Shown: piece by piece, positions 12,419 through 55,300 of the stretch
Layout: each line of letters starts with the position of its first letter
Position numbering within the stretch: position 1 is the first letter of the stretch
From: Brachypterus glaber
Taxonomy: Eukaryota; Arthropoda; Insecta; Coleoptera; Kateretidae
DNA: 64,000 nt
Assembly (NCBI GenBank): GCA_958510825.1
Contig: OY294051.1
Location: 26,461,265 to 26,525,264 of the forward strand
Direction: 5' to 3'
Translations under genes and position numbers: made by a program
Notes under the pieces: generated by a model
The model's input: only the letters and a program-made list of their open reading frames with translations
The model's database searches: none
What the model was told of the DNA's origin: nothing

Positions 12419-14402
12419 GAGAGCACATGTTTATACAATGGATATCCCCAGATTATCCGTTTTGGGATTTCTGACATCCCCAGGATATACGGTTTCGTCT
12501 ATATATATCCGTAGGACATCCTCAGAATATACTTACTAAACGGGAAGCCGAGCGACTTTCGAACCGTATATCCCAAGGATATCCCGAAGGTATGTCTACA
12601 GGGTGTATTTGAAATAGCGTAGGAAATTTTAAGAGGTGATTCTACATGCGTCATAAGGGAGCTACGCCCCTTTGAAATTGGCTAAAAAAATCGGTTTTTA
12701 TTTAATAACTCAGGAACCCTTTGAGATATATTAACGAGGTTTTGCACGTGAATTAATCCTAATAAGGCCCATCTTTGTATGTCATTTTCACGTAATTATT
12801 TAAACCAGGGGTGTGCGAAAAGGGGGGGCTTTATCAGTTTTTTGTCCCAAACTTTTTTGTGTAACTTTTTTGCAATTTTATTTTTGAAATATGATTCCTC
12901 AGGTCAAAATACAAAAAAAAGGTACTCCTGTTGTAATACTGTAGGATTAACCGTTTTCGAGAAAAGTTCATTTGAAGGTGAAATTTCACGGTTCGAGGAC
13001 TAAAAATTAAATACTAAAATGTCGAAAACCAAAATTTGAATGATGCAATGTTACATAAAAAACTAAGAAAAAAAGTTTCCATACATGTGGTCGAAAAAAC
13101 GCTTTTAAAGCTACCATAATCCTTTAAAAATGGTGCATTTTTTCCTTAATTTTTAATGTACATTCGCCCTGCATCATTAAAATTTTGGTTTTCAACATTT
13201 TAGTATTTAATTTTTCGTCCTCGAACCGTGGAATTTCACCTTCAAATGAATTTTTCTCGAAAACGGTTAATCCTACAGTATTACAACAAGAGTACCTTTT
13301 TTATGTATTTTGACCTGAGGAATCATATTTCAAAAATAAAATTGCAAAAAAGTTACACAGAAAAAAGTTTGGGACAAAAAACTGATGAGCCCCCCCCCCC
13401 CCCGTTTCGCACACCCCTGGTTGAAATAAGTACATGAAAATAACACATAAAAACGGGCCTTGGTAGGATTAGTTGACGTGCAAAACCTCGTTGATATATC
13501 TCAAAGGGTTTCTGAGTTATTAAATAAAAACCGATTTTTTTAGCCACTTTCAAAGGGGCGTAGCTCCCTTATGACGCATTTTTAGACATATGTTTATAGG
13601 AACTTTTTGTCATATTTTATGATGTAGAATCATCTGTTAAAATTTCCTACGCTATTTCAAATACACCGTGTATACTGTACGTCTGTCCTAAAGATAGCTA
13701 CTAATTATGTACAACAGTTACTGTCCCCGACAAATAGTATTGCTTTTATTTTTTTTGTACAATATTAGCAGATTGCACGTAGGTGCAAGTTACATATTTA
13801 AATTTAAGCTAATAGGTTTACAAAAAAATAATAAAAGCATTAGGTACTATTTGATAGCCACTTTTTCGGGGACATTTGTACATAATTAACTTATCTACGA
13901 AATATATTTCCTTTTTCATAAAAGGTACTACGATTTACCTTTGCAAAGTCCCATGGACTCGTCCATAAAAAACGTAAAGCACTTTAGACGGAGGGAGTAT
14001 TACCACTTCCTCAGGGAGGGGAATATATTACCCCGTGAGTAAACTCACGAAATTGACCAACAAAAGAAAACACAATATAAATATTTAATAATAATTGCGG
14101 AAAAAACTTACACACATAAACAGACCACAAACACCGACATCCGCCATTAAAATCACGAAAAACGCGATAAATTTAAAACAATAAAGGAAAAGCCATCGTA
14201 GGACATCCCAGGGATATCCGAAAGGACATCCACCGGAAATCCCTTTGGGACGTCCCTGGGATATACGAAGTATATACCGTATATCCTTCGGATATACGGG
14301 CAGTATATCCTCAGGACATACCTTTCGGCATATCCTTGAGATATACGACTAATGTCCCGGGACATGCGAAATTGAGAGGATATCCGGGGGATATTGTGTG
14401 CT
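12419..14402. mobile_element. TIR element with GGATATCC-type subterminal arrays
   Basis: The left end (AGAGCACATG...GGATATCCCC) mirrors the right end (GGATATCCGGGGGATATT...TGTGCT). Arrays at 12440-12600 and 14185-14395 repeat 8-12-base units such as GGATATCC, GGACATCC, GTATATCC and GATATACG, many of them self-complementary. The CAGGGTG foldback (12599-13670) is inserted inside. It is intronic within CCAPR, starting about 40 bases after an exon donor. No transposase was seen, although 13680-14180 is unexplained. Confidence 0.6.
12599..13670. mobile_element. CAGGGTG foldback element with ~520-bp arms and TA target
   Basis: TA-flanked (12597-12598 and 13671-13672). The left arm from CAGGGTGTATTTGAAATAGC is an inverted copy of the right arm ending GCTATTTCAAATACACCGTG. 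Arms meet near 13140. Frames within (12779-13003, 13228-13437, 13353-13553) are mirror products of the two arms, not genes. Related copies: 16463-17259, 63170-63522, and more diverged ones at 41020-41500, 48110-48620 and 57640-58200. The TA target suggests a Tc1/mariner-mobilised family. Confidence 0.75.
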
Positions 14403-15011
14403 ATTAAATTAAATATACCTTATCTTGGATAAGATAGAGAGAGAGAGAATTTTGTACTAAAAATTTTGGACTTTTTTTGAAAAAAACAAATTTGCTAATT
14501 GTAAGGGAGTTTGAATATTTGTTTAATAATAAAGTTTATAACGTTTATAATTAATTCGTTCGTTATGTTCATTTGTTGTTTTCATTGGGTACCGGTCGTT
14601 ACCTCGTAAAAATTACCTCGTAAACATTTACCTCGCTACTAAATACCTCGTAAAAATTACCTCGCAACGATAAATACATCGCACAATATTTTAGCTCGTC
14701 CGAAGTTGTAAAAATTTACCTCCCCATAAGAATACCTCGCAGAATTTTTACCTCGCAACCTGAATACCTCGCGGGTATGAAGATCACCGTAAAAAAAAAT
14801 ATTTTTAACGCATCGTTTTGTATTATTTAACTTTATACTTTTTTTTCTCTTTTAGGTGTTTGATATTTATGTACCTACGCAAATGATTTTATTTCAGTAT
14901 GTATTTAGCAGTTAATAATTATAATTAATAATTAAACAAGCTCACAAAAAAAGTTGTCTGTATTTAATATTCTTATTAAGTCTATATTTTTTATTCTTAT
15001 TATAATAACAA

Positions 15012-15228
15012 TATTTTCCTACGACCTAGTTAGTAGTTAGTGCGTATTTCCCATCCGTTTCCTGTGACAACGGATGGGAAGTGACGATCAGCTGATTTTA
15101 CATACCTGCTGTCAGAAAATTAGTAAAAGTCAAACACATAACCTCAAATTGACAAGATAATTTTCGAGATAATTTTAAGATAATTTTTGAGTTTTTTTAT
15201 GTTTAGGTGTTAGGTTGTAGGAAAAATA
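15012..15228. mobile_element. MITE with TTCCTACGACCTA termini (copy 2)
   Basis: Ends TTTTCCTACGACCTAG and TAGGTTGTAGGAAAA are inverted. The interior shares GATCAGCTGATTTTA with 3028-3206. It is inserted in the ACCTCG foldback. Confidence 0.75.
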
Positions 15229-15237
15229 GTATACTTA

Positions 15238-15552
15238 GTAGAATAGTATGAAATTAAACATATAATAAGAAATTAAACATAAACATATAAACAATAACAC
15301 AGGCCCACAAAAAAAAGTTGTCTGTGCTAGGGTTGATACTCACGGGCTTATTTTTTTGCTACACTGAAAAAACTGGTGAAAATCTCATATTATTAGTCTC
15401 TTTTATGACAGATTCGTTCAGCATCCCAAATTACATAAGAATAGGTGGGTCTCAACCCCAGCACAGACAATTTTTGTTTGTGGACCTTTGTTATTGTTTA
15501 TAAGTTTATGTTTAATTTCATATATGTTTATATTTAATTTCATACTATTCTA
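15238..15552. mobile_element. Foldback MITE, ~315 bp
   Basis: Left GTAGAATAGTATGAAATTAA through AAAAAGTTGTCTGTGCT is an inverted copy of right AGCACAGACAATTTTTG through AATTTCATACTATTCTAC. A shorter related GTTGTCTGT end lies at about 14940-14965. The frame at 15318-15503 spans both arms and is not a gene. Confidence 0.7.
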
Positions 15553-15644
15553 CCTAATGAAGTATAAATATTGTTATTATAATAATAATAATAAATAGAA
15601 ATGTTATAAATTTTATTTTGTTTAATCAATAAAAATATATTACC

Positions 15645-16205
15645 CAGTAAAGAGCTTTCCCATTTTTCACCTCCGAGCGTGAAATGAATTTTTTTATTAT
15701 CAGATTCACTTTCAGCAAAATCTCAATATACCAGTTTTCAAGAAAACTACCCGCCACCCCTTAGGGGGTGGAGTAAAAAAAATTTATTATCAGATTCATA
15801 TTCGTCAACCCCAAAAACCCTATATACCAATTTTGACGAAAACATTGAAACTATTTAAAAATATTTCCCCCACACCCCCGCGGGGGTGGAGTTAGAAAAA
15901 TGTATTTTCCCCATTTGCCCCCCTTGCCGAACCCCAATGTTCAACAAAAACTATCCCGAGCGATAACTTTTGGTAACATACCTGTATGCCAAATTTCAAG
16001 TCTAGCTTAAAGCGTTCTTAAGTTATCGTGCTTACAAGATTTCCAAACGATCGACCGACCGACCGACAATTTTTTTTTGCTCGAAATTGATTTATATTGA
16101 CATACAACGTCAATAAAACGTAAAAATGCGGAAACCAAAATTTTGAAAATTTTTGCACAAATCCAAGGCTTTCCCGAAATTTTGAAAATTTTCAAAATGG
16201 GTAAG
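15645..16205. repeat. Dispersed repeat with CCCC...GGGGGTGGA blocks (copy 1)
   Basis: Shares ordered blocks with 49083-50235: AGAGCTTTCCCATTTTTC, AGATTCACTTTCAGCAA, CCACCCCTTAGGGGGTGGAG, GGTAACATACCTGTATGCC, a GATCGACCGACC stretch, then GACATACAACGTCA. It is of unknown class and non-coding. A copy this ordered suggests a real element or a former retro-derived repeat. Confidence 0.65.
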
Positions 16206-16462
16206 CAGTTATTAATAATTTAAAATAAACTAATAACTAAATTTAATAATTATAATTAATATCATATATTTGGTTTGATTTTGCATAAGGGTTGGGTTCA
16301 GATTGACTCATAAAAGTTAAAAGTATTAGGGGAAAGGGGGAATGGCGGCCGCCTAAGGCTTTTTGTAATTTTTAGCTTTAATAATGTTTTTTTTTTATGG
16401 AAATGAGTTAAATGAAACTTAAAAGTATGCTTTATAAAACCTTATTCTCAAAAAATATTTAA

Positions 16463-17259
16463 ATGTATTTGAAATAGCATAGGAAATTTTAATATGATAA
16501 AATATCACAAAAAGTTCCTATAAATATATGTCTAAAAATGCGTCATAAGGGAGCTACGCCCCTTTGAAAGTGGCTAAAAAAATCGGTTTTTATTTAATAA
16601 CTCAGGAACCCTTTGAGATATATCAACGAGGTTTTGCACGTCAACTAATCCTACCAAGGCCCGTTTTTATGTGTTATTTTCATGTACTTATTTCAACCAG
16701 GGGTGTGCGAAACGGGGGGGCTTATCAGTTTTTTGTCCCAAACTTTTTTCTGTGTAACTTTTTTGCAATTTTATTTTTGAAATATGATTCCTCAGGTCAA
16801 AATACATAAAAAAGGTACTCTTGTTGTAATACTGTAGGATTAACCGTTTTCGAGAAAAATTCATTTGAAGGTGAAATTCCACGGTTCAAGGACGAAAAAT
16901 TAAATACTAAAATGTTGAAAACCAAAATTTTAATGATGCAGGGCGAATGTACATTAAAAACTAAAAAAAAAATCCATATACAGGTACTTCCAAAAATCAA
17001 TCCTAATGGAGCTATGGTCTCCTAAATATGCACCATTTTTAAAGGGCTATGGTAGCTTTAAAAGCGTTTTTTCGACCTACATGTATGGAAACTTTTTTTC
17101 TTAGTTTTTGATGTAAAATAACATTGCAACATAGCCACTTTCAAAAGGGCGTAGCTCCCTTATGACGCATTTTCAGACATGTTTATAGGAACTTTTTGTC
17201 ATATTTTATCATGTAGAATCACCTGTTAAAATTTCCTACGCTATTTCAAATACACCCTG
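16463..17259. mobile_element. Second CAGGGTG-family foldback, left end truncated
   Basis: Left TGTATTTGAAATAGCATAGG and right CCTACGCTATTTCAAATACA are inverted. The right terminus CACCCTG is followed by TA (17260-17261); the left lacks the CAGGG bases. The left arm (about 16520-16970) closely matches 12640-13030. Open frames in it are arm artefacts. Confidence 0.7.
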
Positions 17260-17505
17260 TAGAGGTAAAATTTTGCAAGATATTAGTTCTGCGAGGTTAA
17301 GACCTATACGAGGTAAACTCATCGCGAGGTAAAATTTTGCAATATGATTTGCGAGCTTATGACCCATACGAGGTTAACGTACCGTGAGCCAAAAATGTGC
17401 AAGGTAAAATCTGCGAGGTAATGAGTCACAAGGTAACGACCCCTACCCGTTTTATTAGTTTTGTCATTTTGCTCAAATTTACTTCTCAGGTGTTTTGAAT
17501 TTAAG

Positions 17506-30882: not shown

Positions 30883-31014
30883 TATTATATTTTTAAGGAA
30901 ATATATTTACCGCCGCGCGGTAGTAGTACGGCTAGTATGGTAAAATCTAGGCGCGGTAAATATTATCTCGCAAATACTTGCGCTGTTATTTTTTTGCGGA
31001 TCATTTTATTATCC

Positions 31015-31140: not shown

Positions 31141-31318
31141 CCCCAATACACAAAATGTCATGACTTTTTAAAAAAAATATTAGGTATTGAATTGTATTTA
31201 TTTTTACTTTCGAGCGATCCCATGAGAGACAAGGGCGTATCCAAATATTTTATCTGAGGGTGAGGGTGTACACGCATAATAATTTTGTATTTTAAAATTT
31301 TAAAATAGCTTATGTTGG

Positions 31319-31975
31319 GTGACACACATCTCTACTCATCACATCTCTACTTACGCACATCTCTACTCACGCACATCTCTACTCACACACATCTCTACTC
31401 ACACACATCTCTACTCACACACATCTCTACTCACACACAACTCTACTCAAACACATCTCTACTCACACATATTTCTACTCACACACATCTCTACTCATTG
31501 TCATATACTTTGACATTTATTTAATTAGAACTAGGATACCATGGCGGAACAAGCACTAATCTAAATTATTTTAATATTTTTTTTCTGTAATTCAGCTTAT
31601 AAGTTGTTTATTGCAACCAAAATTTGTTATGAGGTTTATTACTACTAATAGTAACATGGAATAAGGTAAAAAAAAATTACAATAAATAAAATTATAAGTT
31701 ACGAAAAAAATATTAAATAAAATTTAGTTAGTGCTTTGTTCTGCCATTGTATCCTAGTTTTAACCAAATAAATGTAAAAATATGAATAGAGATGTGTGTG
31801 AGTAGAGATATGGGTGAGTAGAGATGTGTTTGAGTAGAGTTGTGTGTGAGTAGAGATGTGTTTGAGTAGAGTTGTGTGTGAGTAGAGATGTGTGTGAGTA
31901 GAGATGTGTGTGAGTAGAGATGTGCGTGAGTAGAGATGTGATGAGCAGAGATGTGTGTCACTCCTTATGTTACCA
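31319..31975. mobile_element. Foldback with CTCACACACATCTCTA minisatellite arms
   Basis: The left arm (31319-31500) has about ten 16-bp units CTCACACACATCTCTA; the right arm (31790-31960) has the inverted units TAGAGATGTGTGTGAG. Outside, GTGACACACATCTC mirrors GAGATGTGTGTCAC. Inside, GGATACCATGGCGGAACAAG pairs with TTGTTCTGCCATTGTATCC around an AT-rich centre near 31640. Frames rich in THTHLYS repeats on both strands are translations of the minisatellite, not genes. Confidence 0.8.
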
Positions 31976-35133: not shown

Positions 35134-35845
35134 TACCTATTATGTTTTAGTCGACATAATTTGTCGGCGGATATATTGTCTCCGGATATTTTGGTTCATG
35201 ATATTTTGCCGGTAAAACTATACCCTAAGTTTCAATGAAACGGGCTCCGGACTTTACAGCGAAAAAATTACCGCGAAGAGCATTACCGCGCAGTCCATTA
35301 CCGCACATGACTTTTACAGCAAACATCGTTTATTGCGCAATTTTTTATATTTTATTTTTATGTAAGGGTTTCTGCGCGGGATAGTAGTTTGGTTTAGGTT
35401 TTCAAAAAAAAACCCGAGGGCGAATATTTAATTTGTATTTTTATTGATAAAGTGAAAAGTTTACTAAATGTATACATTTTGAAATGTGGGTATACCCACA
35501 TTTCTGTGTTTGGTTTTTTGTTTTTGTGTGTTTGTTTTTTTCTATTAAATTTATATCGGTTAATTTTTATTAATCGTCATGTCGATCGAAAATTTTGATT
35601 CGAAATTGTGAAAAGACCACGCTGTATATAGAAATTTTATATACATAAAAGAAAAGACTGTTTAAAATAATTGTTTTTGGAAGTGCCTAAGTTACGACGT
35701 TCTTTGCTGCAGGGGCGTTCGCATACTTTTGATGGAAATGTTTTAAAGGAAACTAGCCATACCCACAACCCGGACCTAGCAGCTATATCGTGTAAAAATG
35801 TTTTAAATAATGTAAATAAATGTATTTTGTTTTATTTTTGAACTA

Positions 35846-36270
35846 CACGGAAAAAAAAAATTATAGCTAGGAGCGCTATAACACACATACCAAGCAAATT
35901 ATAATCGCTTATTATATAAATACAAGGCTTTCTCTTACAATAATGGCAGTCAGTGTAAAAATTTATATGAAATACTTTAATTGTTTAGTGAATAATAAAA
36001 TATAACAAATAGTATGGCATTTATAGCTTAAATAGATTTAATTATTGTCCGTGCTAATAATTTTTATAATATAATAAAATTTCTGTAAATTTATAATAGT
36101 GCCTGTAATAAATATAATCGTGTCTGTAATATATATAATCGTTTCCAATTTATTTTTAACATTATTAGTTATTGTGTCCCTTATAATCTATAGCTTAAAT
36201 CACTATAATTTGCCACTGTTACCAAATATCTTATAATGTATAGCGCAGAGCCCACTAATTTCTTTCCGTG
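35846..36270. mobile_element. CACGG MITE with TA target (copy 1)
   Basis: TA-flanked (35844-35845 and 36271-36272), starting CACGGAAAAAAAAAATTATA and ending CTTTCCGTG. Its right half (36040-36272) is repeated almost unchanged at 37590-37832. Confidence 0.72.
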
Positions 36271-36504
36271 TATTCTTCTGGTTACAATAAAATGTTTATT
36301 TGTTTTCCTGCAAAATAATTAAAAAACACAACAATTTTAAAGTTTAATATTTTTTTCTGCTAAAAAATACAAATAATTATGAGCGGTAATGGTTTTCGCG
36401 GTAAAGTCTATGCGCAGTATTGACCCCCTCGCGGTAATTTTCTTCGCGGTAATGGCTTTGGCGGTGAAGTCTATGCGCGGTAAAGTCTATGCACGGTAAC
36501 GGTG

Positions 36505-36898
36505 CACAGAGGGCCAGAGAAAAAAAAAGTGGACAAAATTCTGAATTTTTGCATACGGCAATTTTTGATACCGCTGATTTCGAATAAAAGACTTTTCAAA
36601 AAAAAATAGCCCTGATTTCGTGCAAATACAGTAAAGGTTCAAAAACCGATGAGTCATATTGACTCCGCCATTTTGAATTTTTAGGTTATGAACATTGGTC
36701 TACATAAACATAATCAAAAGAAGACATTTGACACATTTTTATAAAGATCGAAAGAAAAATAAAATTTTGGACCACCCTAGTGGCGCGGAAAAATTTTTTT
36801 GAATTTTTTCATTATTTTATTCGAAATCAGCGGTATCAAAAATAGCCGTATTCAAAAATTCAGAATTTTGTCCACTTTTTTTCCTCTGGCCCTCTGTG
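36505..36898. mobile_element. CACAGAGGGCCAGAG TIR element
   Basis: Left CACAGAGGGCCAGAGAAAAA mirrors right TTTTTTTCCTCTGGCCCTCT (GTG). Pairing continues through AATTCTGAATTTTTG and GATACCGCTGATTTCGAA. It is inserted in the right arm of the ACCGCG foldback, splitting its array. Confidence 0.75.
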
Positions 36899-37045
36899 CG
36901 GTGGCGCGCAACGGTGTCGCGGTAATGGACTGCGCTGTAAAGACCCCTACCCCAATGAAACTGTTTCATGTTAGACTAGCAACATTTGGGCCGTTTTCTC
37001 GGTGTACTTTTCATGCAGCATAAACTAGAGGAATCTGTAAAAAGC

Positions 37046-37832
37046 TACACGAAAAAAAAATTATTTTTTAAACATTTTTTTTCATATAGAAAGAAAAAAG
37101 ATATCATTGTGAAATTTTGTAGGTATGTTTATTTATATTCAAAGAATACAAATTAGATAGATAGATAGATTTTTACAGTGCCATTTTCTGGCCATAATTT
37201 TTTTTGAAAAAAAAACATCAAAAAACGGTGGTCGCCATGATTCCGGCCGTTTGGATCGAAAAAAACAAAACGGGATATTATTCAGTATTAAAGTCACTAT
37301 AGCCCTATCTCAAAGAAAAAAATTTGGCCAAAAAAAAACAAAATGGCTAACGTTTATCAAAAAATTTCAAACATTTTCAGACGACCACCGTTTTTTGATG
37401 TTTTTTTTTTTTCAAAAAAAAATTATGGCTAGGAAATAGCACTTTAAAAGCCTGAAGAAATTTTATTTGTATTCTTTGTATATAAGTAAACATACCTAGA
37501 AAATTTCACAATGATACCTTTTTTCTTTCTATATAAAAAAATGTTTAAAAAAGATATTTTTTATAGATTTATAAATTTCTAAGACCCCTTAAATGATTTA
37601 ATTATTGTCCGTGCTAATAATTTTTATAATATAATAAAATTTCTGTAAATTCATAATAGTGCCTGTAATAAATATAATCGTTTCTGTAATAAATATAATC
37701 GTTTCCAATTTATTTTTAACATTATTAGTTTTCGTGTCCCTTGTAATATATAGCTTAAATCACTATAATTTGCCACTGTTACCAAATATCTTATAATGTA
37801 TAGCTCAGAGCCCACTAATTTCTTACCGTGTA
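37046..37832. mobile_element. CACGG element copy 2 with an inner foldback
   Basis: Starts TACACGAAAAAAAAATTAT and ends TTACCGTGTA; 37590-37832 is a direct copy of 36040-36272. Between the ends lies a ~495-bp near-palindrome (37062-37556) with AAACATCAAAAAACGGTGGT pairing with ACCACCGTTTTTTGATGTTT. The frame at 37251-37439 follows this palindrome and is not a gene. Confidence 0.65.
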
Positions 37833-50857: not shown

Positions 50858-53800
50858 ATGGCTTCCGCGTTATCTTCGAAGATGGACGAGTTCAATTGTG
50901 AGGAAATCGATTGGGAAATCTACAGCGAACGGTTGCAGCATCATTTCAACGCTTTCTCCGTAAAAAATGAGGTACGTGTACCTATGTTGCTAAGTTTAAT
51001 GGGAACGAAAACCTATAAACTATGCCGCGATCTGTGTTTTCCGGACAAACCAAGTGACAAATCCTTTGAACAGTTGAACGAGTTATTGTTGGAACATTTT
51101 AATAAAAAAGTTTCGGTTTGGAAAGAACGAACTAAATTTATGGATATTTCTCAGGGTGACGGTGAGAAAATTAGCGATTATTACGCACGTTTGTGTGGAG
51201 CCGCCAGCGAATGCAATTTCGGCGGTAATTTAAAGGACATTTTGAAAATAAAATTCATTACGGGGATGAGAAAAGGAAAGACATATGATAGAGTAGCGGA
51301 AGAGAAAGAAGACACTAGCCTGACGAAAATTCTGGAAATTGCAAAGTCAAAAGAGAGGCAGCATGATGACGAAGTAAATATTAACTACGTGAGCAGGCGC
51401 AGGTTTGATTCGACGAATAAGCGACGAGATTACGGTCACGTGGGACCAACGTCAGCAGCGAGACCAACCGGCAACGTACACGGCTCGACAAGGCCAGCGA
51501 AAGCGTACGACGATAACCGGACGGAACCGAAGCATCAGTTTGACAAGAGGACAAACATGGCTATCCAAAACAATAACTTCAACAACAAACGCAAGTTTAA
51601 CAAATTTTCGTGCAAAATTTGTGGTTCAAAAGGGCATCAGGCCAAGCGATGTTGGAAGAAAAAATTTAATTACGTAGAGAATGGTCAGGAAGATGATTCT
51701 AGTGGAAATTCTAGCGAAAACAACGAAGGAATGTGGTATTTGGGCACGGACTTATGTAATGTTGACAATGTTTGTAACAATGTGAGTGTTAATCAATGTA
51801 AACAGGTAAATAACGAGACAGGTATTAATAGGTTTAAAGTGGATGTAACTATTGACAAAAAAATTCATAATTTTCATATAGATACGGGGGCGAGTATAAG
51901 TGCTATCCCGATCGACGTTTATAACAAGAAATTTGGTAAATATAAGCTAAAATTTGACAATTTGACCTTAAGGTCATACAATAACACTGTTTTTAAACCG
52001 GTGGGATATTTTTATGTCAATATAACTTTTGAAAACAAATGTAAAAATATAAAATTGTATGTTGTAGATAAAGCTGGATGTTGCATCTTGGGACGAAACT
52101 GGCTGGATGAATTCCATGTATGTCTAGGATCAGTGAATCATGTTTCGTCAGCATCATCTACGGCAAAACCCGAGTCCATTATAGCAGATTTTCCGGAGGT
52201 ATTCAGTGGTAAACTAGGCAAATTTAAGCACGCAAAAATCAAGCTTCATTTGAAGAAAGATGCGGTTCCTGTTTTTGTCAAAGCACGCAACGTCCCACTA
52301 GCTTATAGAAAAAAGCTGGACGAAGAACTTTCAAGGCTAGAAGCTGAGGGAGTCATATCAAAAACGTCAACAACAGAGTGGAGTACGGCTTTAGTTTGTG
52401 TGATGAAGGCATCAGGTGAACTACGTTTATGCGCTGACTATAAAACCACGGTAAATAAATCCCTAGCAGAAATGCAATACCCATTACCTAGACACGAGGA
52501 AATTTTTTCAAAATTGTCAGGGGGAAAAAAGTTTTCCAAACTCGATATGAACAGAGCGTATTTGCAATTCGAGGTCGATGATGAGGCCAGTAAGATATTA
52601 ACCTGGAATAGTCACAGGGGGCTTTATAGGGTCCATCGCTTGCCCTTCGGTATAAAAATAGCGTCTTTTGCTTTCCAAAAAAATATAGAATCTTTGCTTT
52701 GCGATATAGAGGGGGTAGCCGTCTTCCTCGATGATATTATTATCACAGGAAAAAACGATGAGGACCATAAAAAAAACCTTTACAAAGTACTCGACAGGTT
52801 CAGGGAGGCAGGGCTCACTTTAAAAAAAGAGAAATGTAAATTTTTTAGTGACAATTTAGAATTTTTAGGACATAAAATTGACAAAGAGGGCATTTCGAAA
52901 AGTAAAAAAAAGGTAGAAGCTATTTTAAAAGCACCTAGCCCAACGAATTTAACGGAGACCAGAGCATTTTTGGGGTTAATTCAATATTATGGAAAATTCA
53001 TACCCAACTCTGTGAGCATATTAAAGCCTATTTATGACCTATTAAAAAAAGATAAAAAATTCAATTGGAATAAAGAATGCGAAAAAAGTTTCGAGACGGT
53101 AAAAAAGATAATTACATCAGATTCGGTACTTGTTCATTTCAATCCCGAGCATCCCGTAATTCTTACCGTAGACGCGAGTGAAAAAGGAATCGCTGCCTGT
53201 TTGGCGCATTTAATTAGGGGGACGGAAAGGCCTATAGCGTTCATTTCAAGAACCTTACAAAAAAGCGAAGCTTTATACCCCATTGTTCACTTAGAAGTGT
53301 TAAGTATATATTATGCGTTGCAAAAGTTTTATCCCTATCTCCAAGGTTTAAAATTTACCATAAAATGCGATGCAAAAACAGTCGTAGGCATGTTTAGACA
53401 CGACAAGAAATTACCTGTAATGTACGCGAACAGATTACAGAGATATGCAGCTTTCTTATCAAATTTTGATTACGAAATAAAACATGTGAGCGGAAAATCT
53501 AACTTAGTTTCAGATTTTCTAAGCCGACTACCAGTAAAAATAGCAAAAGAAGAAGAAGATAAAGGAGAATATCTAAACTTCACCGAGCAGATTGAAGAAT
53601 GGCCCTTGATTAATCAAAATGTGAGAGAAGAAACAGAAAAAGACGAAAATTTGCAAGAAATAATAGAATATGTGAAGAAAAATAAATGGCCAACAAATAT
53701 CAGGGAGGAACTTAAAAATTATAAAAACAGAAGAGATGAATTGGTGGTGGAAAACGGAATTTTAATGGTTGGCTATAGAATAGTCATTCCAACGACTTTA

Positions 53801-55300
53801 AGAAGACAATTATTGGAAGAAATCCACAGTCACCATTTTGGGATTGTTAAATCTAAAAATCTCGCAAGATCTTACTTGTATTGGCCAAGTCTGGACAATG
53901 ATATTGAAAAAACCTGTAAAAGCTGCGAATATTGCCTTCAAAATAGTAAGTTACCACCAAAAAGCATACTTACACCATGGAAAATAGAAAAAAAACCATG
54001 GAGTAAAATAAATATGGATTACCTAGGCCCAATCAATAACCAGAGATTTTTGATTGTCACAGATAGTTTTTCTAAGTGGGTCGAAGTTTTTCCAGTGAAA
54101 ACTATGACGTCACTAGAAACCGAAGAAAAATTAAAGGAATTGGTATCAAGATTTGGATTTCCAGTCAAGGTCACGTCAGACCAGGGTACCCAATTTATGG
54201 CCGAGAATGTGCAGAAGTTTTTCAGACGAAACGGAATAGAGCACATAACATCACCAGTAGCAAATCCCGCCAGCAACGGCGCCGCTGAAAATAGCGTGGG
54301 AACTTTCAAAAGAAACCTAAAGACGAGACTTTTGGATCCGAAAAACAAAGGTAAATCTCTAAATATGATCGTTTCTGAGTATTTATTCTCATACAGAATA
54401 ACCCCACACTGTGGAACCAAAGAAACCCCAGCAAAATTAATGCTAGGACGAGAATTACGATCAAGGTTAGATTTACTGAGGGAAAAACCAGGACCAAATA
54501 TGGTAGAAAACAATATAACAACAATAAATCACCAAAAAGAACAAGAAAGACAAAAAAAATATCATAAAGGGAGAATCAGAAACTTAGAAGTTGGAGAAAA
54601 GGTTATGGTCACAGATTATAGAATACCTAACAGGAGAAAATGGACAAAAGCCGAAATTATAGAGAAAATTGGCAGTTCCGTGTACAACTGTATGTTAGAC
54701 AACGGAAAAATATGGAAAAGAAGTATAAACCAAATAATAAGACGCGAAGAAAAACAAGAAAAACCACCGATAAGGAGCGAGATAACACAAAAAAGGACAA
54801 ATTTCGAAGAAAAACGTAAATACGCAACATTTTACGAATTTCCCAGAGACACGGACAAAAAGGGAAAGTCAGAACAGGGGAATATTCAGGAAAAGGACGA
54901 CACAGAAAGAAATTTCGAAGAAAATGCAAGGCAAAATGACCCAGAAGAAGATTTCGAAGGAAATGCTGGACGTAGCAGCCCGAGAAAGAGGGAAAAGCTA
55001 AAAATAAACGAACATGATTCACGGATATCTGGACAGCAGGAGCGCATTCACCCGGAAAACTCCCAGGAGGCAGGACCCAGCCTACAGGGTAAGAAGTCTG
55101 AAAATGTTCCACCTAAAAATAAAAAGGGAGAGGGGAAGGGATGTGTGAATACTTTACCTGAAAAATTAATACCTGAAAAATTATTACCTGAAAATGAAAA
55201 CCCGGAAAATAATAAAAAAAATATAGATTCTAGTAGAACTAAAAGGGAAATAAAAAAGCCAAATAGATTTAGAGATTTTATTACAGATTTTATAGATTAG
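50858..55300 (+). CDS. gag-pol polyprotein of the Ty3/gypsy retrotransposon
   Basis: 1480 residues without a stop or frameshift, with gag and pol fused in one frame. Order: gag capsid-like region (about 1-200); CCHC zinc knuckle CKICGSKGHQAKRC (252-265), which binds genomic RNA; aspartic protease with DTGAS (D342); reverse transcriptase with LDMNRAYLQ and catalytic FLDD (623-626); RNase H beginning TVDAS (D772); integrase with an HH-CC zinc region (HSHHFG, CKSCEYC), then D1054, D1108 and E1144, a D,D35E triad; a GPY/F-like C-terminal region (KWTKAEIIEKIGSSVYN); and a charged, repeat-rich tail (about 1270-1480) of unknown role. The ATG at 50858 gives the first in-frame Met after the PBS. All catalytic residues seen are intact, so autonomy is plausible. 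Antisense and +1 frames inside are shadows. Confidence 0.95.
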   Translation: MASALSSKMDEFNCEEIDWEIYSERLQHHFNAFSVKNEVRVPMLLSLMGTKTYKLCRDLCFPDKPSDKSFEQLNELLLEHFNKKVSVWKERTKFMDISQGDGEKISDYYARLCGAASECNFGGNLKDILKIKFITGMRKGKTYDRVAEEKEDTSLTKILEIAKSKERQHDDEVNINYVSRRRFDSTNKRRDYGHVGPTSAARPTGNVHGSTRPAKAYDDNRTEPKHQFDKRTNMAIQNNNFNNKRKFNKFSCKICGSKGHQAKRCWKKKFNYVENGQEDDSSGNSSENNEGMWYLGTDLCNVDNVCNNVSVNQCKQVNNETGINRFKVDVTIDKKIHNFHIDTGASISAIPIDVYNKKFGKYKLKFDNLTLRSYNNTVFKPVGYFYVNITFENKCKNIKLYVVDKAGCCILGRNWLDEFHVCLGSVNHVSSASSTAKPESIIADFPEVFSGKLGKFKHAKIKLHLKKDAVPVFVKARNVPLAYRKKLDEELSRLEAEGVISKTSTTEWSTALVCVMKASGELRLCADYKTTVNKSLAEMQYPLPRHEEIFSKLSGGKKFSKLDMNRAYLQFEVDDEASKILTWNSHRGLYRVHRLPFGIKIASFAFQKNIESLLCDIEGVAVFLDDIIITGKNDEDHKKNLYKVLDRFREAGLTLKKEKCKFFSDNLEFLGHKIDKEGISKSKKKVEAILKAPSPTNLTETRAFLGLIQYYGKFIPNSVSILKPIYDLLKKDKKFNWNKECEKSFETVKKIITSDSVLVHFNPEHPVILTVDASEKGIAACLAHLIRGTERPIAFISRTLQKSEALYPIVHLEVLSIYYALQKFYPYLQGLKFTIKCDAKTVVGMFRHDKKLPVMYANRLQRYAAFLSNFDYEIKHVSGKSNLVSDFLSRLPVKIAKEEEDKGEYLNFTEQIEEWPLINQNVREETEKDENLQEIIEYVKKNKWPTNIREELKNYKNRRDELVVENGILMVGYRIVIPTTLRRQLLEEIHSHHFGIVKSKNLARSYLYWPSLDNDIEKTCKSCEYCLQNSKLPPKSILTPWKIEKKPWSKINMDYLGPINNQRFLIVTDSFSKWVEVFPVKTMTSLETEEKLKELVSRFGFPVKVTSDQGTQFMAENVQKFFRRNGIEHITSPVANPASNGAAENSVGTFKRNLKTRLLDPKNKGKSLNMIVSEYLFSYRITPHCGTKETPAKLMLGRELRSRLDLLREKPGPNMVENNITTINHQKEQERQKKYHKGRIRNLEVGEKVMVTDYRIPNRRKWTKAEIIEKIGSSVYNCMLDNGKIWKRSINQIIRREEKQEKPPIRSEITQKRTNFEEKRKYATFYEFPRDTDKKGKSEQGNIQEKDDTERNFEENARQNDPEEDFEGNAGRSSPRKREKLKINEHDSRISGQQERIHPENSQEAGPSLQGKKSENVPPKNKKGEGKGCVNTLPEKLIPEKLLPENENPENNKKNIDSSRTKREIKKPNRFRDFITDFID

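What the first reader, a model, noticed from the sequence alone, without database searches (positions are those of the whole stretch)
14587..17448. Sister foldback with ACCTCG arrays and the same terminus
The ends GGGTAGGGGTCGTTAC and (at 36952) GGGTAGGGGTCTTTAC are nearly the same, yet the arm unit is ACCTCG here and ACCGCG there, a one-base change propagated through the whole array. This implies concerted change of the unit within each element, i.e. two subfamilies of one system whose arm repeats evolve together. Repeat units may be transposase binding sites that co-evolve with the protein.
Basis: inference. Interest (0 to 1): 0.75.

Follow-up and report, generated by a model that had tools for sequence, protein, structure and literature searches.

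The report
Jumping-gene family with two repeat dialects
This is a damaged copy of a cut-and-paste jumping gene (Mutator type) from an insect genome, one of hundreds of copies that share nearly the same tips but carry arrays of either ACCTCG or ACCGCG repeats, giving natural material to test how such jumping genes recognise their own ends.

Summary
Window 14587-17448 is an old, insertion-riddled, non-coding foldback element. It and its sister (35242-36952) fit Mutator (MULE) transposons of the Phantom/Tm1 type: FLYWCH + MULE transposase, 9-bp target duplication, 14-16 bp repeats in both arms. The window's genome (648 Mb, insect by inference) holds 404 exact copies of the right terminus GGGTAGGGGTCNTTAC (0 reversed controls): 81 run into CTCG, 223 into AGCG/CGCG. 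In 29 classed elements arrays are nearly pure: T class 189 T, 0 G of 195 units; G class 247 G, 6 T of 265; 25 of 25 two-armed elements agree in class. So the two subfamilies are real. The proposed mechanism, concerted change within each element, is not supported: units keep one core while spacers differ by half or more, and copies keep position-specific spacers. The core is inherited from each subfamily's master and looks selected there, as expected of a transposase-binding site (inferred). Spacers, interiors and FLYWCH-coding remnants also differ between classes, so this is not one propagated base. MULE genes flanked by ACCGCG arrays were found; no ACCTCG-flanked transposase was. New member of a known kind.

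The parts
14587..17448 (.). Element A: ACCTCG-class non-coding foldback (Mutator/MULE type), with nested repeats
14578..14586 (+). left flank GTTTTCATT, decayed target duplication (inferred)
   Evidence: the right flank looks like it with one base lost; 6 of 9 in ungapped comparison
17449..17457 (+). right flank GTTTTATTA, decayed target duplication (inferred)
14587..14602 (+). left terminus GGGTACCGGTCGTTAC
14599..14771 (+). left arm array, units TTACCTCG mostly at 14-16 bp spacing (10 units with up to 1 mismatch)
17261..17436 (-). right arm array (8 units with up to 1 mismatch, all T at the variable base)
17433..17448 (-). right terminus GGGTAGGGGTCGTTAC
   Evidence: GGGTAGGGGTCNTTAC has 404 exact copies genome-wide, 0 reversed controls
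16464..17261 (.). nested palindromic repeat inside A, relative of window 12646-13672
15238..15553 (.). nested palindromic repeat inside A
35242..36952 (.). Element B: ACCGCG-class sister element
35233..35241 (+). 9-bp target duplication CAATGAAAC, left copy
36953..36961 (+). 9-bp target duplication CAATGAAAC, right copy
35242..35257 (+). left terminus GGGCTCCGGACTTTAC
35254..35305 (+). left arm array, TTACCGCG units
35710..35820 (+). remnant of the FLYWCH (DNA-binding) part of a MULE transposase, 48.6% over 37 aa, E 7e-6
36382..36499 (-). right arm array, inner part, TTACCGCG units
36504..36899 (.). nested palindromic repeat splitting the right arm of B
36918..36952 (-). right arm, outer part, with terminus GGGTAGGGGTCTTTAC
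30905..30960 (-). decayed fragment of an ACCGCG arm (two units)

Best explanation
A and B are non-autonomous copies of two subfamilies of FLYWCH-MULE (Mutator, Phantom/Tm1-like) cut-and-paste transposons. A transposase supplied in trans inserted them with a 9-bp staggered cut (the target duplications are shown, the enzyme is inferred). Each end is a short, left/right-asymmetric terminus shared by the subfamilies, followed by an array of 14-16 bp repeats whose 6-bp core is most likely the repeated binding site of the FLYWCH domain (inferred). The cores of a subfamily's master copy are kept alike by selection for binding while spacers drift (inferred from the consensus); after insertion copies decay, core as well as spacer (shown in the sample). 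The T/G difference therefore marks two transposase lineages that diverged in array, interior and DNA-binding region while keeping nearly the same termini. It is not homogenisation inside each element.
For: 404 exact right ends, 0 reversed controls. Target duplications: 8 of 18 elements with both ends located have 9 of 9, 4 more have 8 of 9, 3 more a perfect 8-mer. Two of 18 MULE matches in the genome (L141/L159, L152/L170) are flanked by inverted TTACCGCG arrays, with MULE (PF10551 E 4.7e-16 in L141, 2e-09 in L152) and FLYWCH (PF04500 E 0.012 in L141, 7.4e-06 in L152); L170 has GCGCGTTTG on both sides. FLYWCH-coding remnants sit in B and in 11 of 17 fetched G elements at E up to 0.04 and, more weakly, in 4 of 11 T elements. 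Class purity and 25 of 25 arm agreement. In the T consensus 12 of 12 cores are identical while spacers differ by 51% between units; in copies the core is not spared (6.4% against 3.0% T; 9.0% against 10.4% G). Left-end consensus: GGGAGCCGGTCTTTAC (T) and GGGCGCCGGACTTTAC (G); right-end consensus GGGTAGGGGTCTTTAC in both, though copies were picked by that terminus, so only its N base is free evidence.
Against: No intact transposase with exactly these termini, and no T-class transposase at all, was found; the T remnant is weak (best E 1.6e-4). 0 of 81 T-type right ends, against 16 of 100 listed G-type ends, have a scored match to the C-family transposase within 2.5 kb (only 148 of 620 candidates were scored). 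Binding was not tested. G1 and G2 share the ACCGCG core yet their FLYWCH remnants are only 39-45% identical, about as far apart as T and G2 (41-46%), over about 41 residues, so core and binding domain do not track each other simply. Element A's spacers match neither class set clearly (17 and 73 of 200 shuffles reach the observed score), so A is not a typical member of the main T subfamily, and no FLYWCH remnant was seen in it. Six T units occur in G arrays. The fetched copies are the first-listed ones of contig C1 with an exact right end, and units were picked by likeness to the core, which flatters core uniformity.
Confidence: 0.8

Rival explanations
1. Concerted evolution inside each element: slippage or gene conversion between units and arms homogenises the whole array of a copy, so one base change spreads through it.
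For: Arrays are nearly pure and both arms agree; whole-unit gains and losses are visible between T copies.
Against: Spacers are not homogenised: 0.49 (T) and 0.37 (G) identity between units of one copy against 0.93 and 0.79 at the same position between copies; the core is not spared in copies, T 6.4% against 3.0% in spacers, G 9.0% against 10.4% (8 T and 11 G copies, right arms only).
Confidence: 0.07
2. Re-amplification in the master lineage: after T and G split, the array of at least one lineage was rebuilt from one founder unit (both arms), then spacers drifted while cores were kept. This is a sub-question of the best explanation, against unit-by-unit replacement in an old array.
For: T spacers are shared between the two arms: mean best match 0.62/0.75 between T arms, against 0.41/0.42 and 0.40/0.22 for the same arm across classes; G arms 0.41/0.54, hardly above the cross-class values.
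Against: Part of the T signal may be A-richness. Weak traces of shared unit order between classes: 103 of 1000 shuffles (right arms) and 34 of 1000 (left arms) reach the observed order score (spacer lists entered by hand).
Confidence: 0.45
3. A different transposon superfamily with foldback arms, such as Galileo (P superfamily), that converged on this form.
For: Foldback form arises in unrelated superfamilies (Tm1 and Galileo papers, passages).
Against: 9-bp duplications; FLYWCH-MULE genes inside inverted TTACCGCG arrays and FLYWCH remnants inside the elements.
Confidence: 0.03

Closest known systems
Tm1, Mutator/Foldback (Phantom) elements of root-knot nematodes (PMC3169594; passages seen)
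   Same: FLYWCH + MULE transposase; mostly 9-bp target duplications; asymmetric 7-bp end motifs outside the inverted repeat, one of them CCTACCC, the same 7 letters as the last 7 of our right end on the + strand (strand convention of the paper not checked); 13-15 bp tandem repeats in variable number; most copies non-coding
   Different: Different repeat unit and left end motif; a purine-rich motif D that was not looked for here; in the passages seen the unit consensus is compared between species, here divergent subfamilies coexist in one genome
Muta1 and Muta5, MULEs of Aedes aegypti (PMC5225508; passages seen)
   Same: 8-9 bp target duplication, 145-151 bp inverted repeats made of an 8-10 bp terminal motif and 9 copies of a 12-15 bp subterminal repeat, many non-autonomous derivatives; FLYWCH domain in 13 of 14 Aedes MULE families
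   Different: Terminal motif and unit letters not compared; left/right asymmetry not mentioned in the passages seen
Galileo foldback elements of Drosophila (PMC3573991; passages seen)
   Same: Subfamilies defined by inverted repeats; tandem repeats proposed as secondary transposase-binding sites
   Different: P superfamily, 7-bp duplications; 12 of 170 copies are chimeric between subfamilies, none of our 25 two-armed elements is mixed between arms

Membership tests
Mutator (MULE) superfamily | 8-10 bp target site duplication | tested here: met
   15 of 18 elements with both ends located: 8 with 9/9, 4 with 8/9, 3 with a perfect 8-mer; misses A (6/9), L135, L190
Mutator (MULE) superfamily | MULE transposase between these inverted arrays | tested here: inconclusive
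   Met for the related C family (L141/L159 and L152/L170), whose genes read in two frames; in A nothing and in B only a FLYWCH remnant was found with the C-family protein and its relatives
Phantom subclass of Mutator | N-terminal FLYWCH zinc finger plus MULE domain | tested here: met
   C family: PF04500 E 7.4e-06 (L152) and 0.012 (L141), PF10551 E 4.7e-16 (L141); remnants in G elements; T remnant weak, best E 1.6e-4. For A itself: no remnant seen
Foldback-type element | long inverted repeats built of tandem direct repeats | tested here: met
   A and B; of 28 fetched copies 23 have at least two units in each arm, L179, L183 and L196 in the near arm only, L136 and L139 practically none
Tm1 family | same motif C repeat and motif D | not tested
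   No Tm1 sequence was aligned; units look different from the consensus printed in the passages
Galileo / P superfamily | P-type transposase | not tested
   no search with a P-type profile; MULE found instead

The most novel reading that the evidence does not exclude
The two classes are naturally orthogonal recognition systems: FLYWCH domains of sister transposases read ACCTCG or ACCGCG (and AGCGC in further MULE families of the same genome), so one lineage can change its address code throughout some 20 binding sites while the cleavage terminus stays the same. Specificity and cutting would then be separable modules, and each array class would be moved only by its own transposase.
Probability: 0.25. 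Interest if true: 0.65.

Novelty: new member of a known kind. Interest (0 to 1): 0.42.

Why it matters
Tandem repeats in transposon arms have been proposed to be extra transposase-binding sites (PMC3573991, passage), but sequence alone rarely tests this. Here a core that is uniform between units, set against free spacers, separates selection on the site in the master from decay in the copies, and sister subfamilies with shared termini give ready material for testing how FLYWCH domains read DNA and how a transposon changes its own address.

Tried and rejected
A literature search for the terminus letters gave 8 papers, by their titles unrelated. Similarity between T and G elements: 6 cross-class pairs with any blastn hit, of which 4 involve sequence beyond the end of at least one element, one is arm against arm (L191/L134, 126 bases) and one is short (L192/L135). 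A spacer-order test was weak. DNA folding of the termini was uninformative. I looked for a T-class transposase with the C-family protein (places compared) and found none; a search with the T remnant was asked 14 times and never answered, nor were patterns for the GTTAC end and for other first units. The array 55154-55210 (TTACCTGAAAAATTA) was considered as a third subfamily and rejected: it lies inside the retroelement ORF 50858-55300.

Rows dropped before counts: L136 (no array) from the class tally; A, L139, L196 and B, L179, L192 from the right-arm consensus, and elements whose left end was not located from the left-arm consensus (7 T and 9 G copies used); A, L139, L196, and B, L179, L180, L183, L188, L189, L192, L136 from the core/spacer test. 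One search used 77 of 81 T-type ends and 131 of 150 protein matches; one search repeats it with all 81 and all 150, same outcome for T. The papers named were seen as passages found by search terms, not whole. Novelty rests on searches and 98 of open-licence papers; the Phantom paper (PMC2927773) is not held, so what I say of Phantom comes from the Tm1 passages.

Full report
What is there. The window is most likely insect DNA (GC 0.31; its retroelement pol ORF has as best match, at 43% identity, a protein of the beetle Anoplophora glabripennis; the species is not established) and lies on contig C16 of a 648-Mb assembly. Element A (14587-17448) has ACCTCG arrays facing inward at both ends, element B (35242-36952) ACCGCG arrays. 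Units are mostly spaced 14-16 bp. The variable base is T in 18 of 18 units of A and G in 12 of 12 units of B once one match inside a nested insert is set aside. TTACCKCG is about twelve times commoner in the window than in shuffles (18 against 1.54).

Correction to the finding. The terminus quoted for position 14587 is the right end of A, read on the minus strand. The left end is GGGTACCGGTCGTTAC. B has the same asymmetry: left GGGCTCCGGACTTTAC, right GGGTAGGGGTCTTTAC. Left and right ends also differ in the position of the second unit, +27 against +28, in both elements. So A and B share an ancestor with unlike ends (inference).

Insertion. B is flanked by CAATGAAAC on both sides. Of 18 elements with both ends located, 8 have 9 of 9 matching flank bases, 4 have 8 of 9, and 3 have a perfect 8-mer; A (6 of 9), L135 and L190 do not qualify. 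This is the 8-10 bp duplication reported for Mutator elements (PMC5225508, passages).

Genome-wide. GGGTAGGGGTCNTTAC has 215 + 189 exact matches and 0 reversed controls. Of these 404, 81 continue as CTCG and 223 as AGCG or CGCG; the remaining 100 vary in the first unit. Among the 100 G-type places listed, the end TCATTAC is followed by CGCG in 12 of 14 and TCTTTAC by AGCG in 85 of 86, so the G class holds at least two groups (G1, G2). Three of the 81 T-type ends carry the GTTAC of element A.

Purity. I classed A, B and 27 of 28 fetched copies (L136 has no array; L139 has a single unit): 11 T and 18 G. T elements: 189 T, 4 A, 2 C, 0 G of 195 units. G elements: 247 G, 12 A, 6 T of 265. In all 25 elements with at least two units in each arm, the arms agree in class, 9 T and 16 G. 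The six T units sit in 5 G elements: L140, L182, L191, L192, L195. Labels come from the same units, so the point is the absence of intermediates and the agreement of the arms, not the label. The copies are those listed first on contig C1 and chosen by an exact right end.

How the arrays evolve. In the T consensus (8 copies, right arms) all 12 cores are ACCTCG while spacers differ by 51% between units; in the G consensus (11 copies) cores differ by 6.5% and spacers by 60% (units were found by likeness to the core with one mismatch allowed, which favours uniform cores). Between copies, the spacer at a given position is alike (0.93 T, 0.79 G); within a copy, spacers of different positions are not (0.49, 0.37). 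Divergence of copies from consensus is 6.4% in cores and 3.0% in spacers for T, 9.0% and 10.4% for G. So arrays are not homogenised within a copy, and inserted copies do not protect the core; the uniform cores must have been maintained in the masters. An invariant core with free spacers is what a repeated protein-binding site would give (inference). Whether the T/G change came by rebuilding an array from one unit or unit by unit is open: T spacers are shared between the arms of the class, G spacers hardly more than across classes, and there are weak traces of common unit order between the classes. Whole-unit gains and losses between T copies are visible.

The transposase. Of 18 MULE-domain matches in the genome, two lie between inverted TTACCGCG arrays (family C here). 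Their product has MULE and FLYWCH domains, their ends resemble those of the G class (right GGATAGGGTCTTTTACAGCG in both, left GGGCGCCGTCTTTTACAGCG in L170), and L170 has a perfect 9-bp duplication; both genes read in two frames. Six other MULE genes (L160, L163, L164, L166, L168, L171; family D) lie between arrays of AAAATAGCGCTGGAC-like units, and L165 and L167 (family E) carry AATAGCGCG-like units, found on one side only in L167; the other 8 of 18 showed no such pair. B and 11 of 17 fetched G elements hold remnants of the FLYWCH-coding end of a related transposase at E up to 0.04; in B it is 48.6% over 37 residues. Among the first 100 right ends listed, 16 of 79 non-T ends, 7 of them among the 10 TCATTAC ends, have a match of that protein within 2.5 kb, against 0 of 21 T-type ends; with all rows typed, 0 of 81 T-type ends and 16 of the 100 listed G-type ends. 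That protein search scored 148 of 620 candidates, so these are lower bounds. Four of 11 T elements hold a different, weaker FLYWCH-like remnant (E 1.6e-4 to 0.036). Over about 41 residues T and G1 are 24-30% identical, T and G2 41-46%, G1 and G2 39-45%, G1 and C 47-50%, two T copies 88%. That G1 and G2 share a core but not a closer FLYWCH sequence tells against a simple one-to-one link between core and binding domain; the pieces are short and decayed.

What it is and is not. I place it among the FLYWCH-bearing (Phantom-type) Mutator elements with foldback arms, closest in form to Tm1 of root-knot nematodes (passages) and Muta1/Muta5 of Aedes (passages). That arm repeats may be secondary transposase-binding sites is already proposed in print for such elements (PMC3573991, passage). 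A 2026 survey of arthropod MULEs notes variable inverted repeats and conserved G/C first bases; the word 'tandem' does not occur in its main text (PMC13359780, passages). What I did not find in the searches is a genome in which sister FLYWCH-MULE subfamilies with the same terminus differ in an array core that is uniform within each; this rests on open-licence papers and on listings and passages only.

Verdict. Observation real with corrected ends; two subfamilies confirmed genome-wide; within-element concerted change not supported; binding-site co-evolution plausible and testable but unproven. Element A itself is an old, heavily interrupted copy whose spacers match neither main class clearly, so it may represent a further T-core lineage.

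Noticed in passing
window 31317-31963: Another foldback-type element with ends GGGTGACACACATCTC / GAGTGACACACATCTC, an 8-bp flank repeat CTTATGTT on both sides, and arms of about 11 copies of a 16-bp unit ACACACATCTCTACTC.
   Followed up: partly
window 12646-13672 and 16464-17261: A long palindromic repeat present twice near each other, the second copy nested in element A beside its right arm; further relatives at 41.4, 48.1, 57.7 and 63.2 kb.
   Followed up: no
L160, L163, L164, L166, L168, L171 (about 3.1-5.1 kb in each): A MULE family with inverted arrays of AAAATAGCGCTGGAC-like 15-bp units on both sides of the gene and ends GGCTCTGGG / GCTCCGCTCC, read in five of the six (not L166).
   Followed up: partly
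window 36027-36272 and 37588-37832: Two copies, 96% identical, of a short repeat, one inside element B and one just outside it.
   Followed up: no
window 50858-55300: Retroelement ORF of 1480 aa (Gypsy-like by its domains, my reading) without a stop, with gag, reverse transcriptase, RNase H and integrase domains.
   Followed up: no
L188, L189 and one search places: A G-class group with terminus GGGTAGGGGTCATTAC, often followed by CGCG, with the longest FLYWCH remnants seen inside the fetched elements, 57.6% to P0094 over 66 residues in L188.
   Followed up: partly
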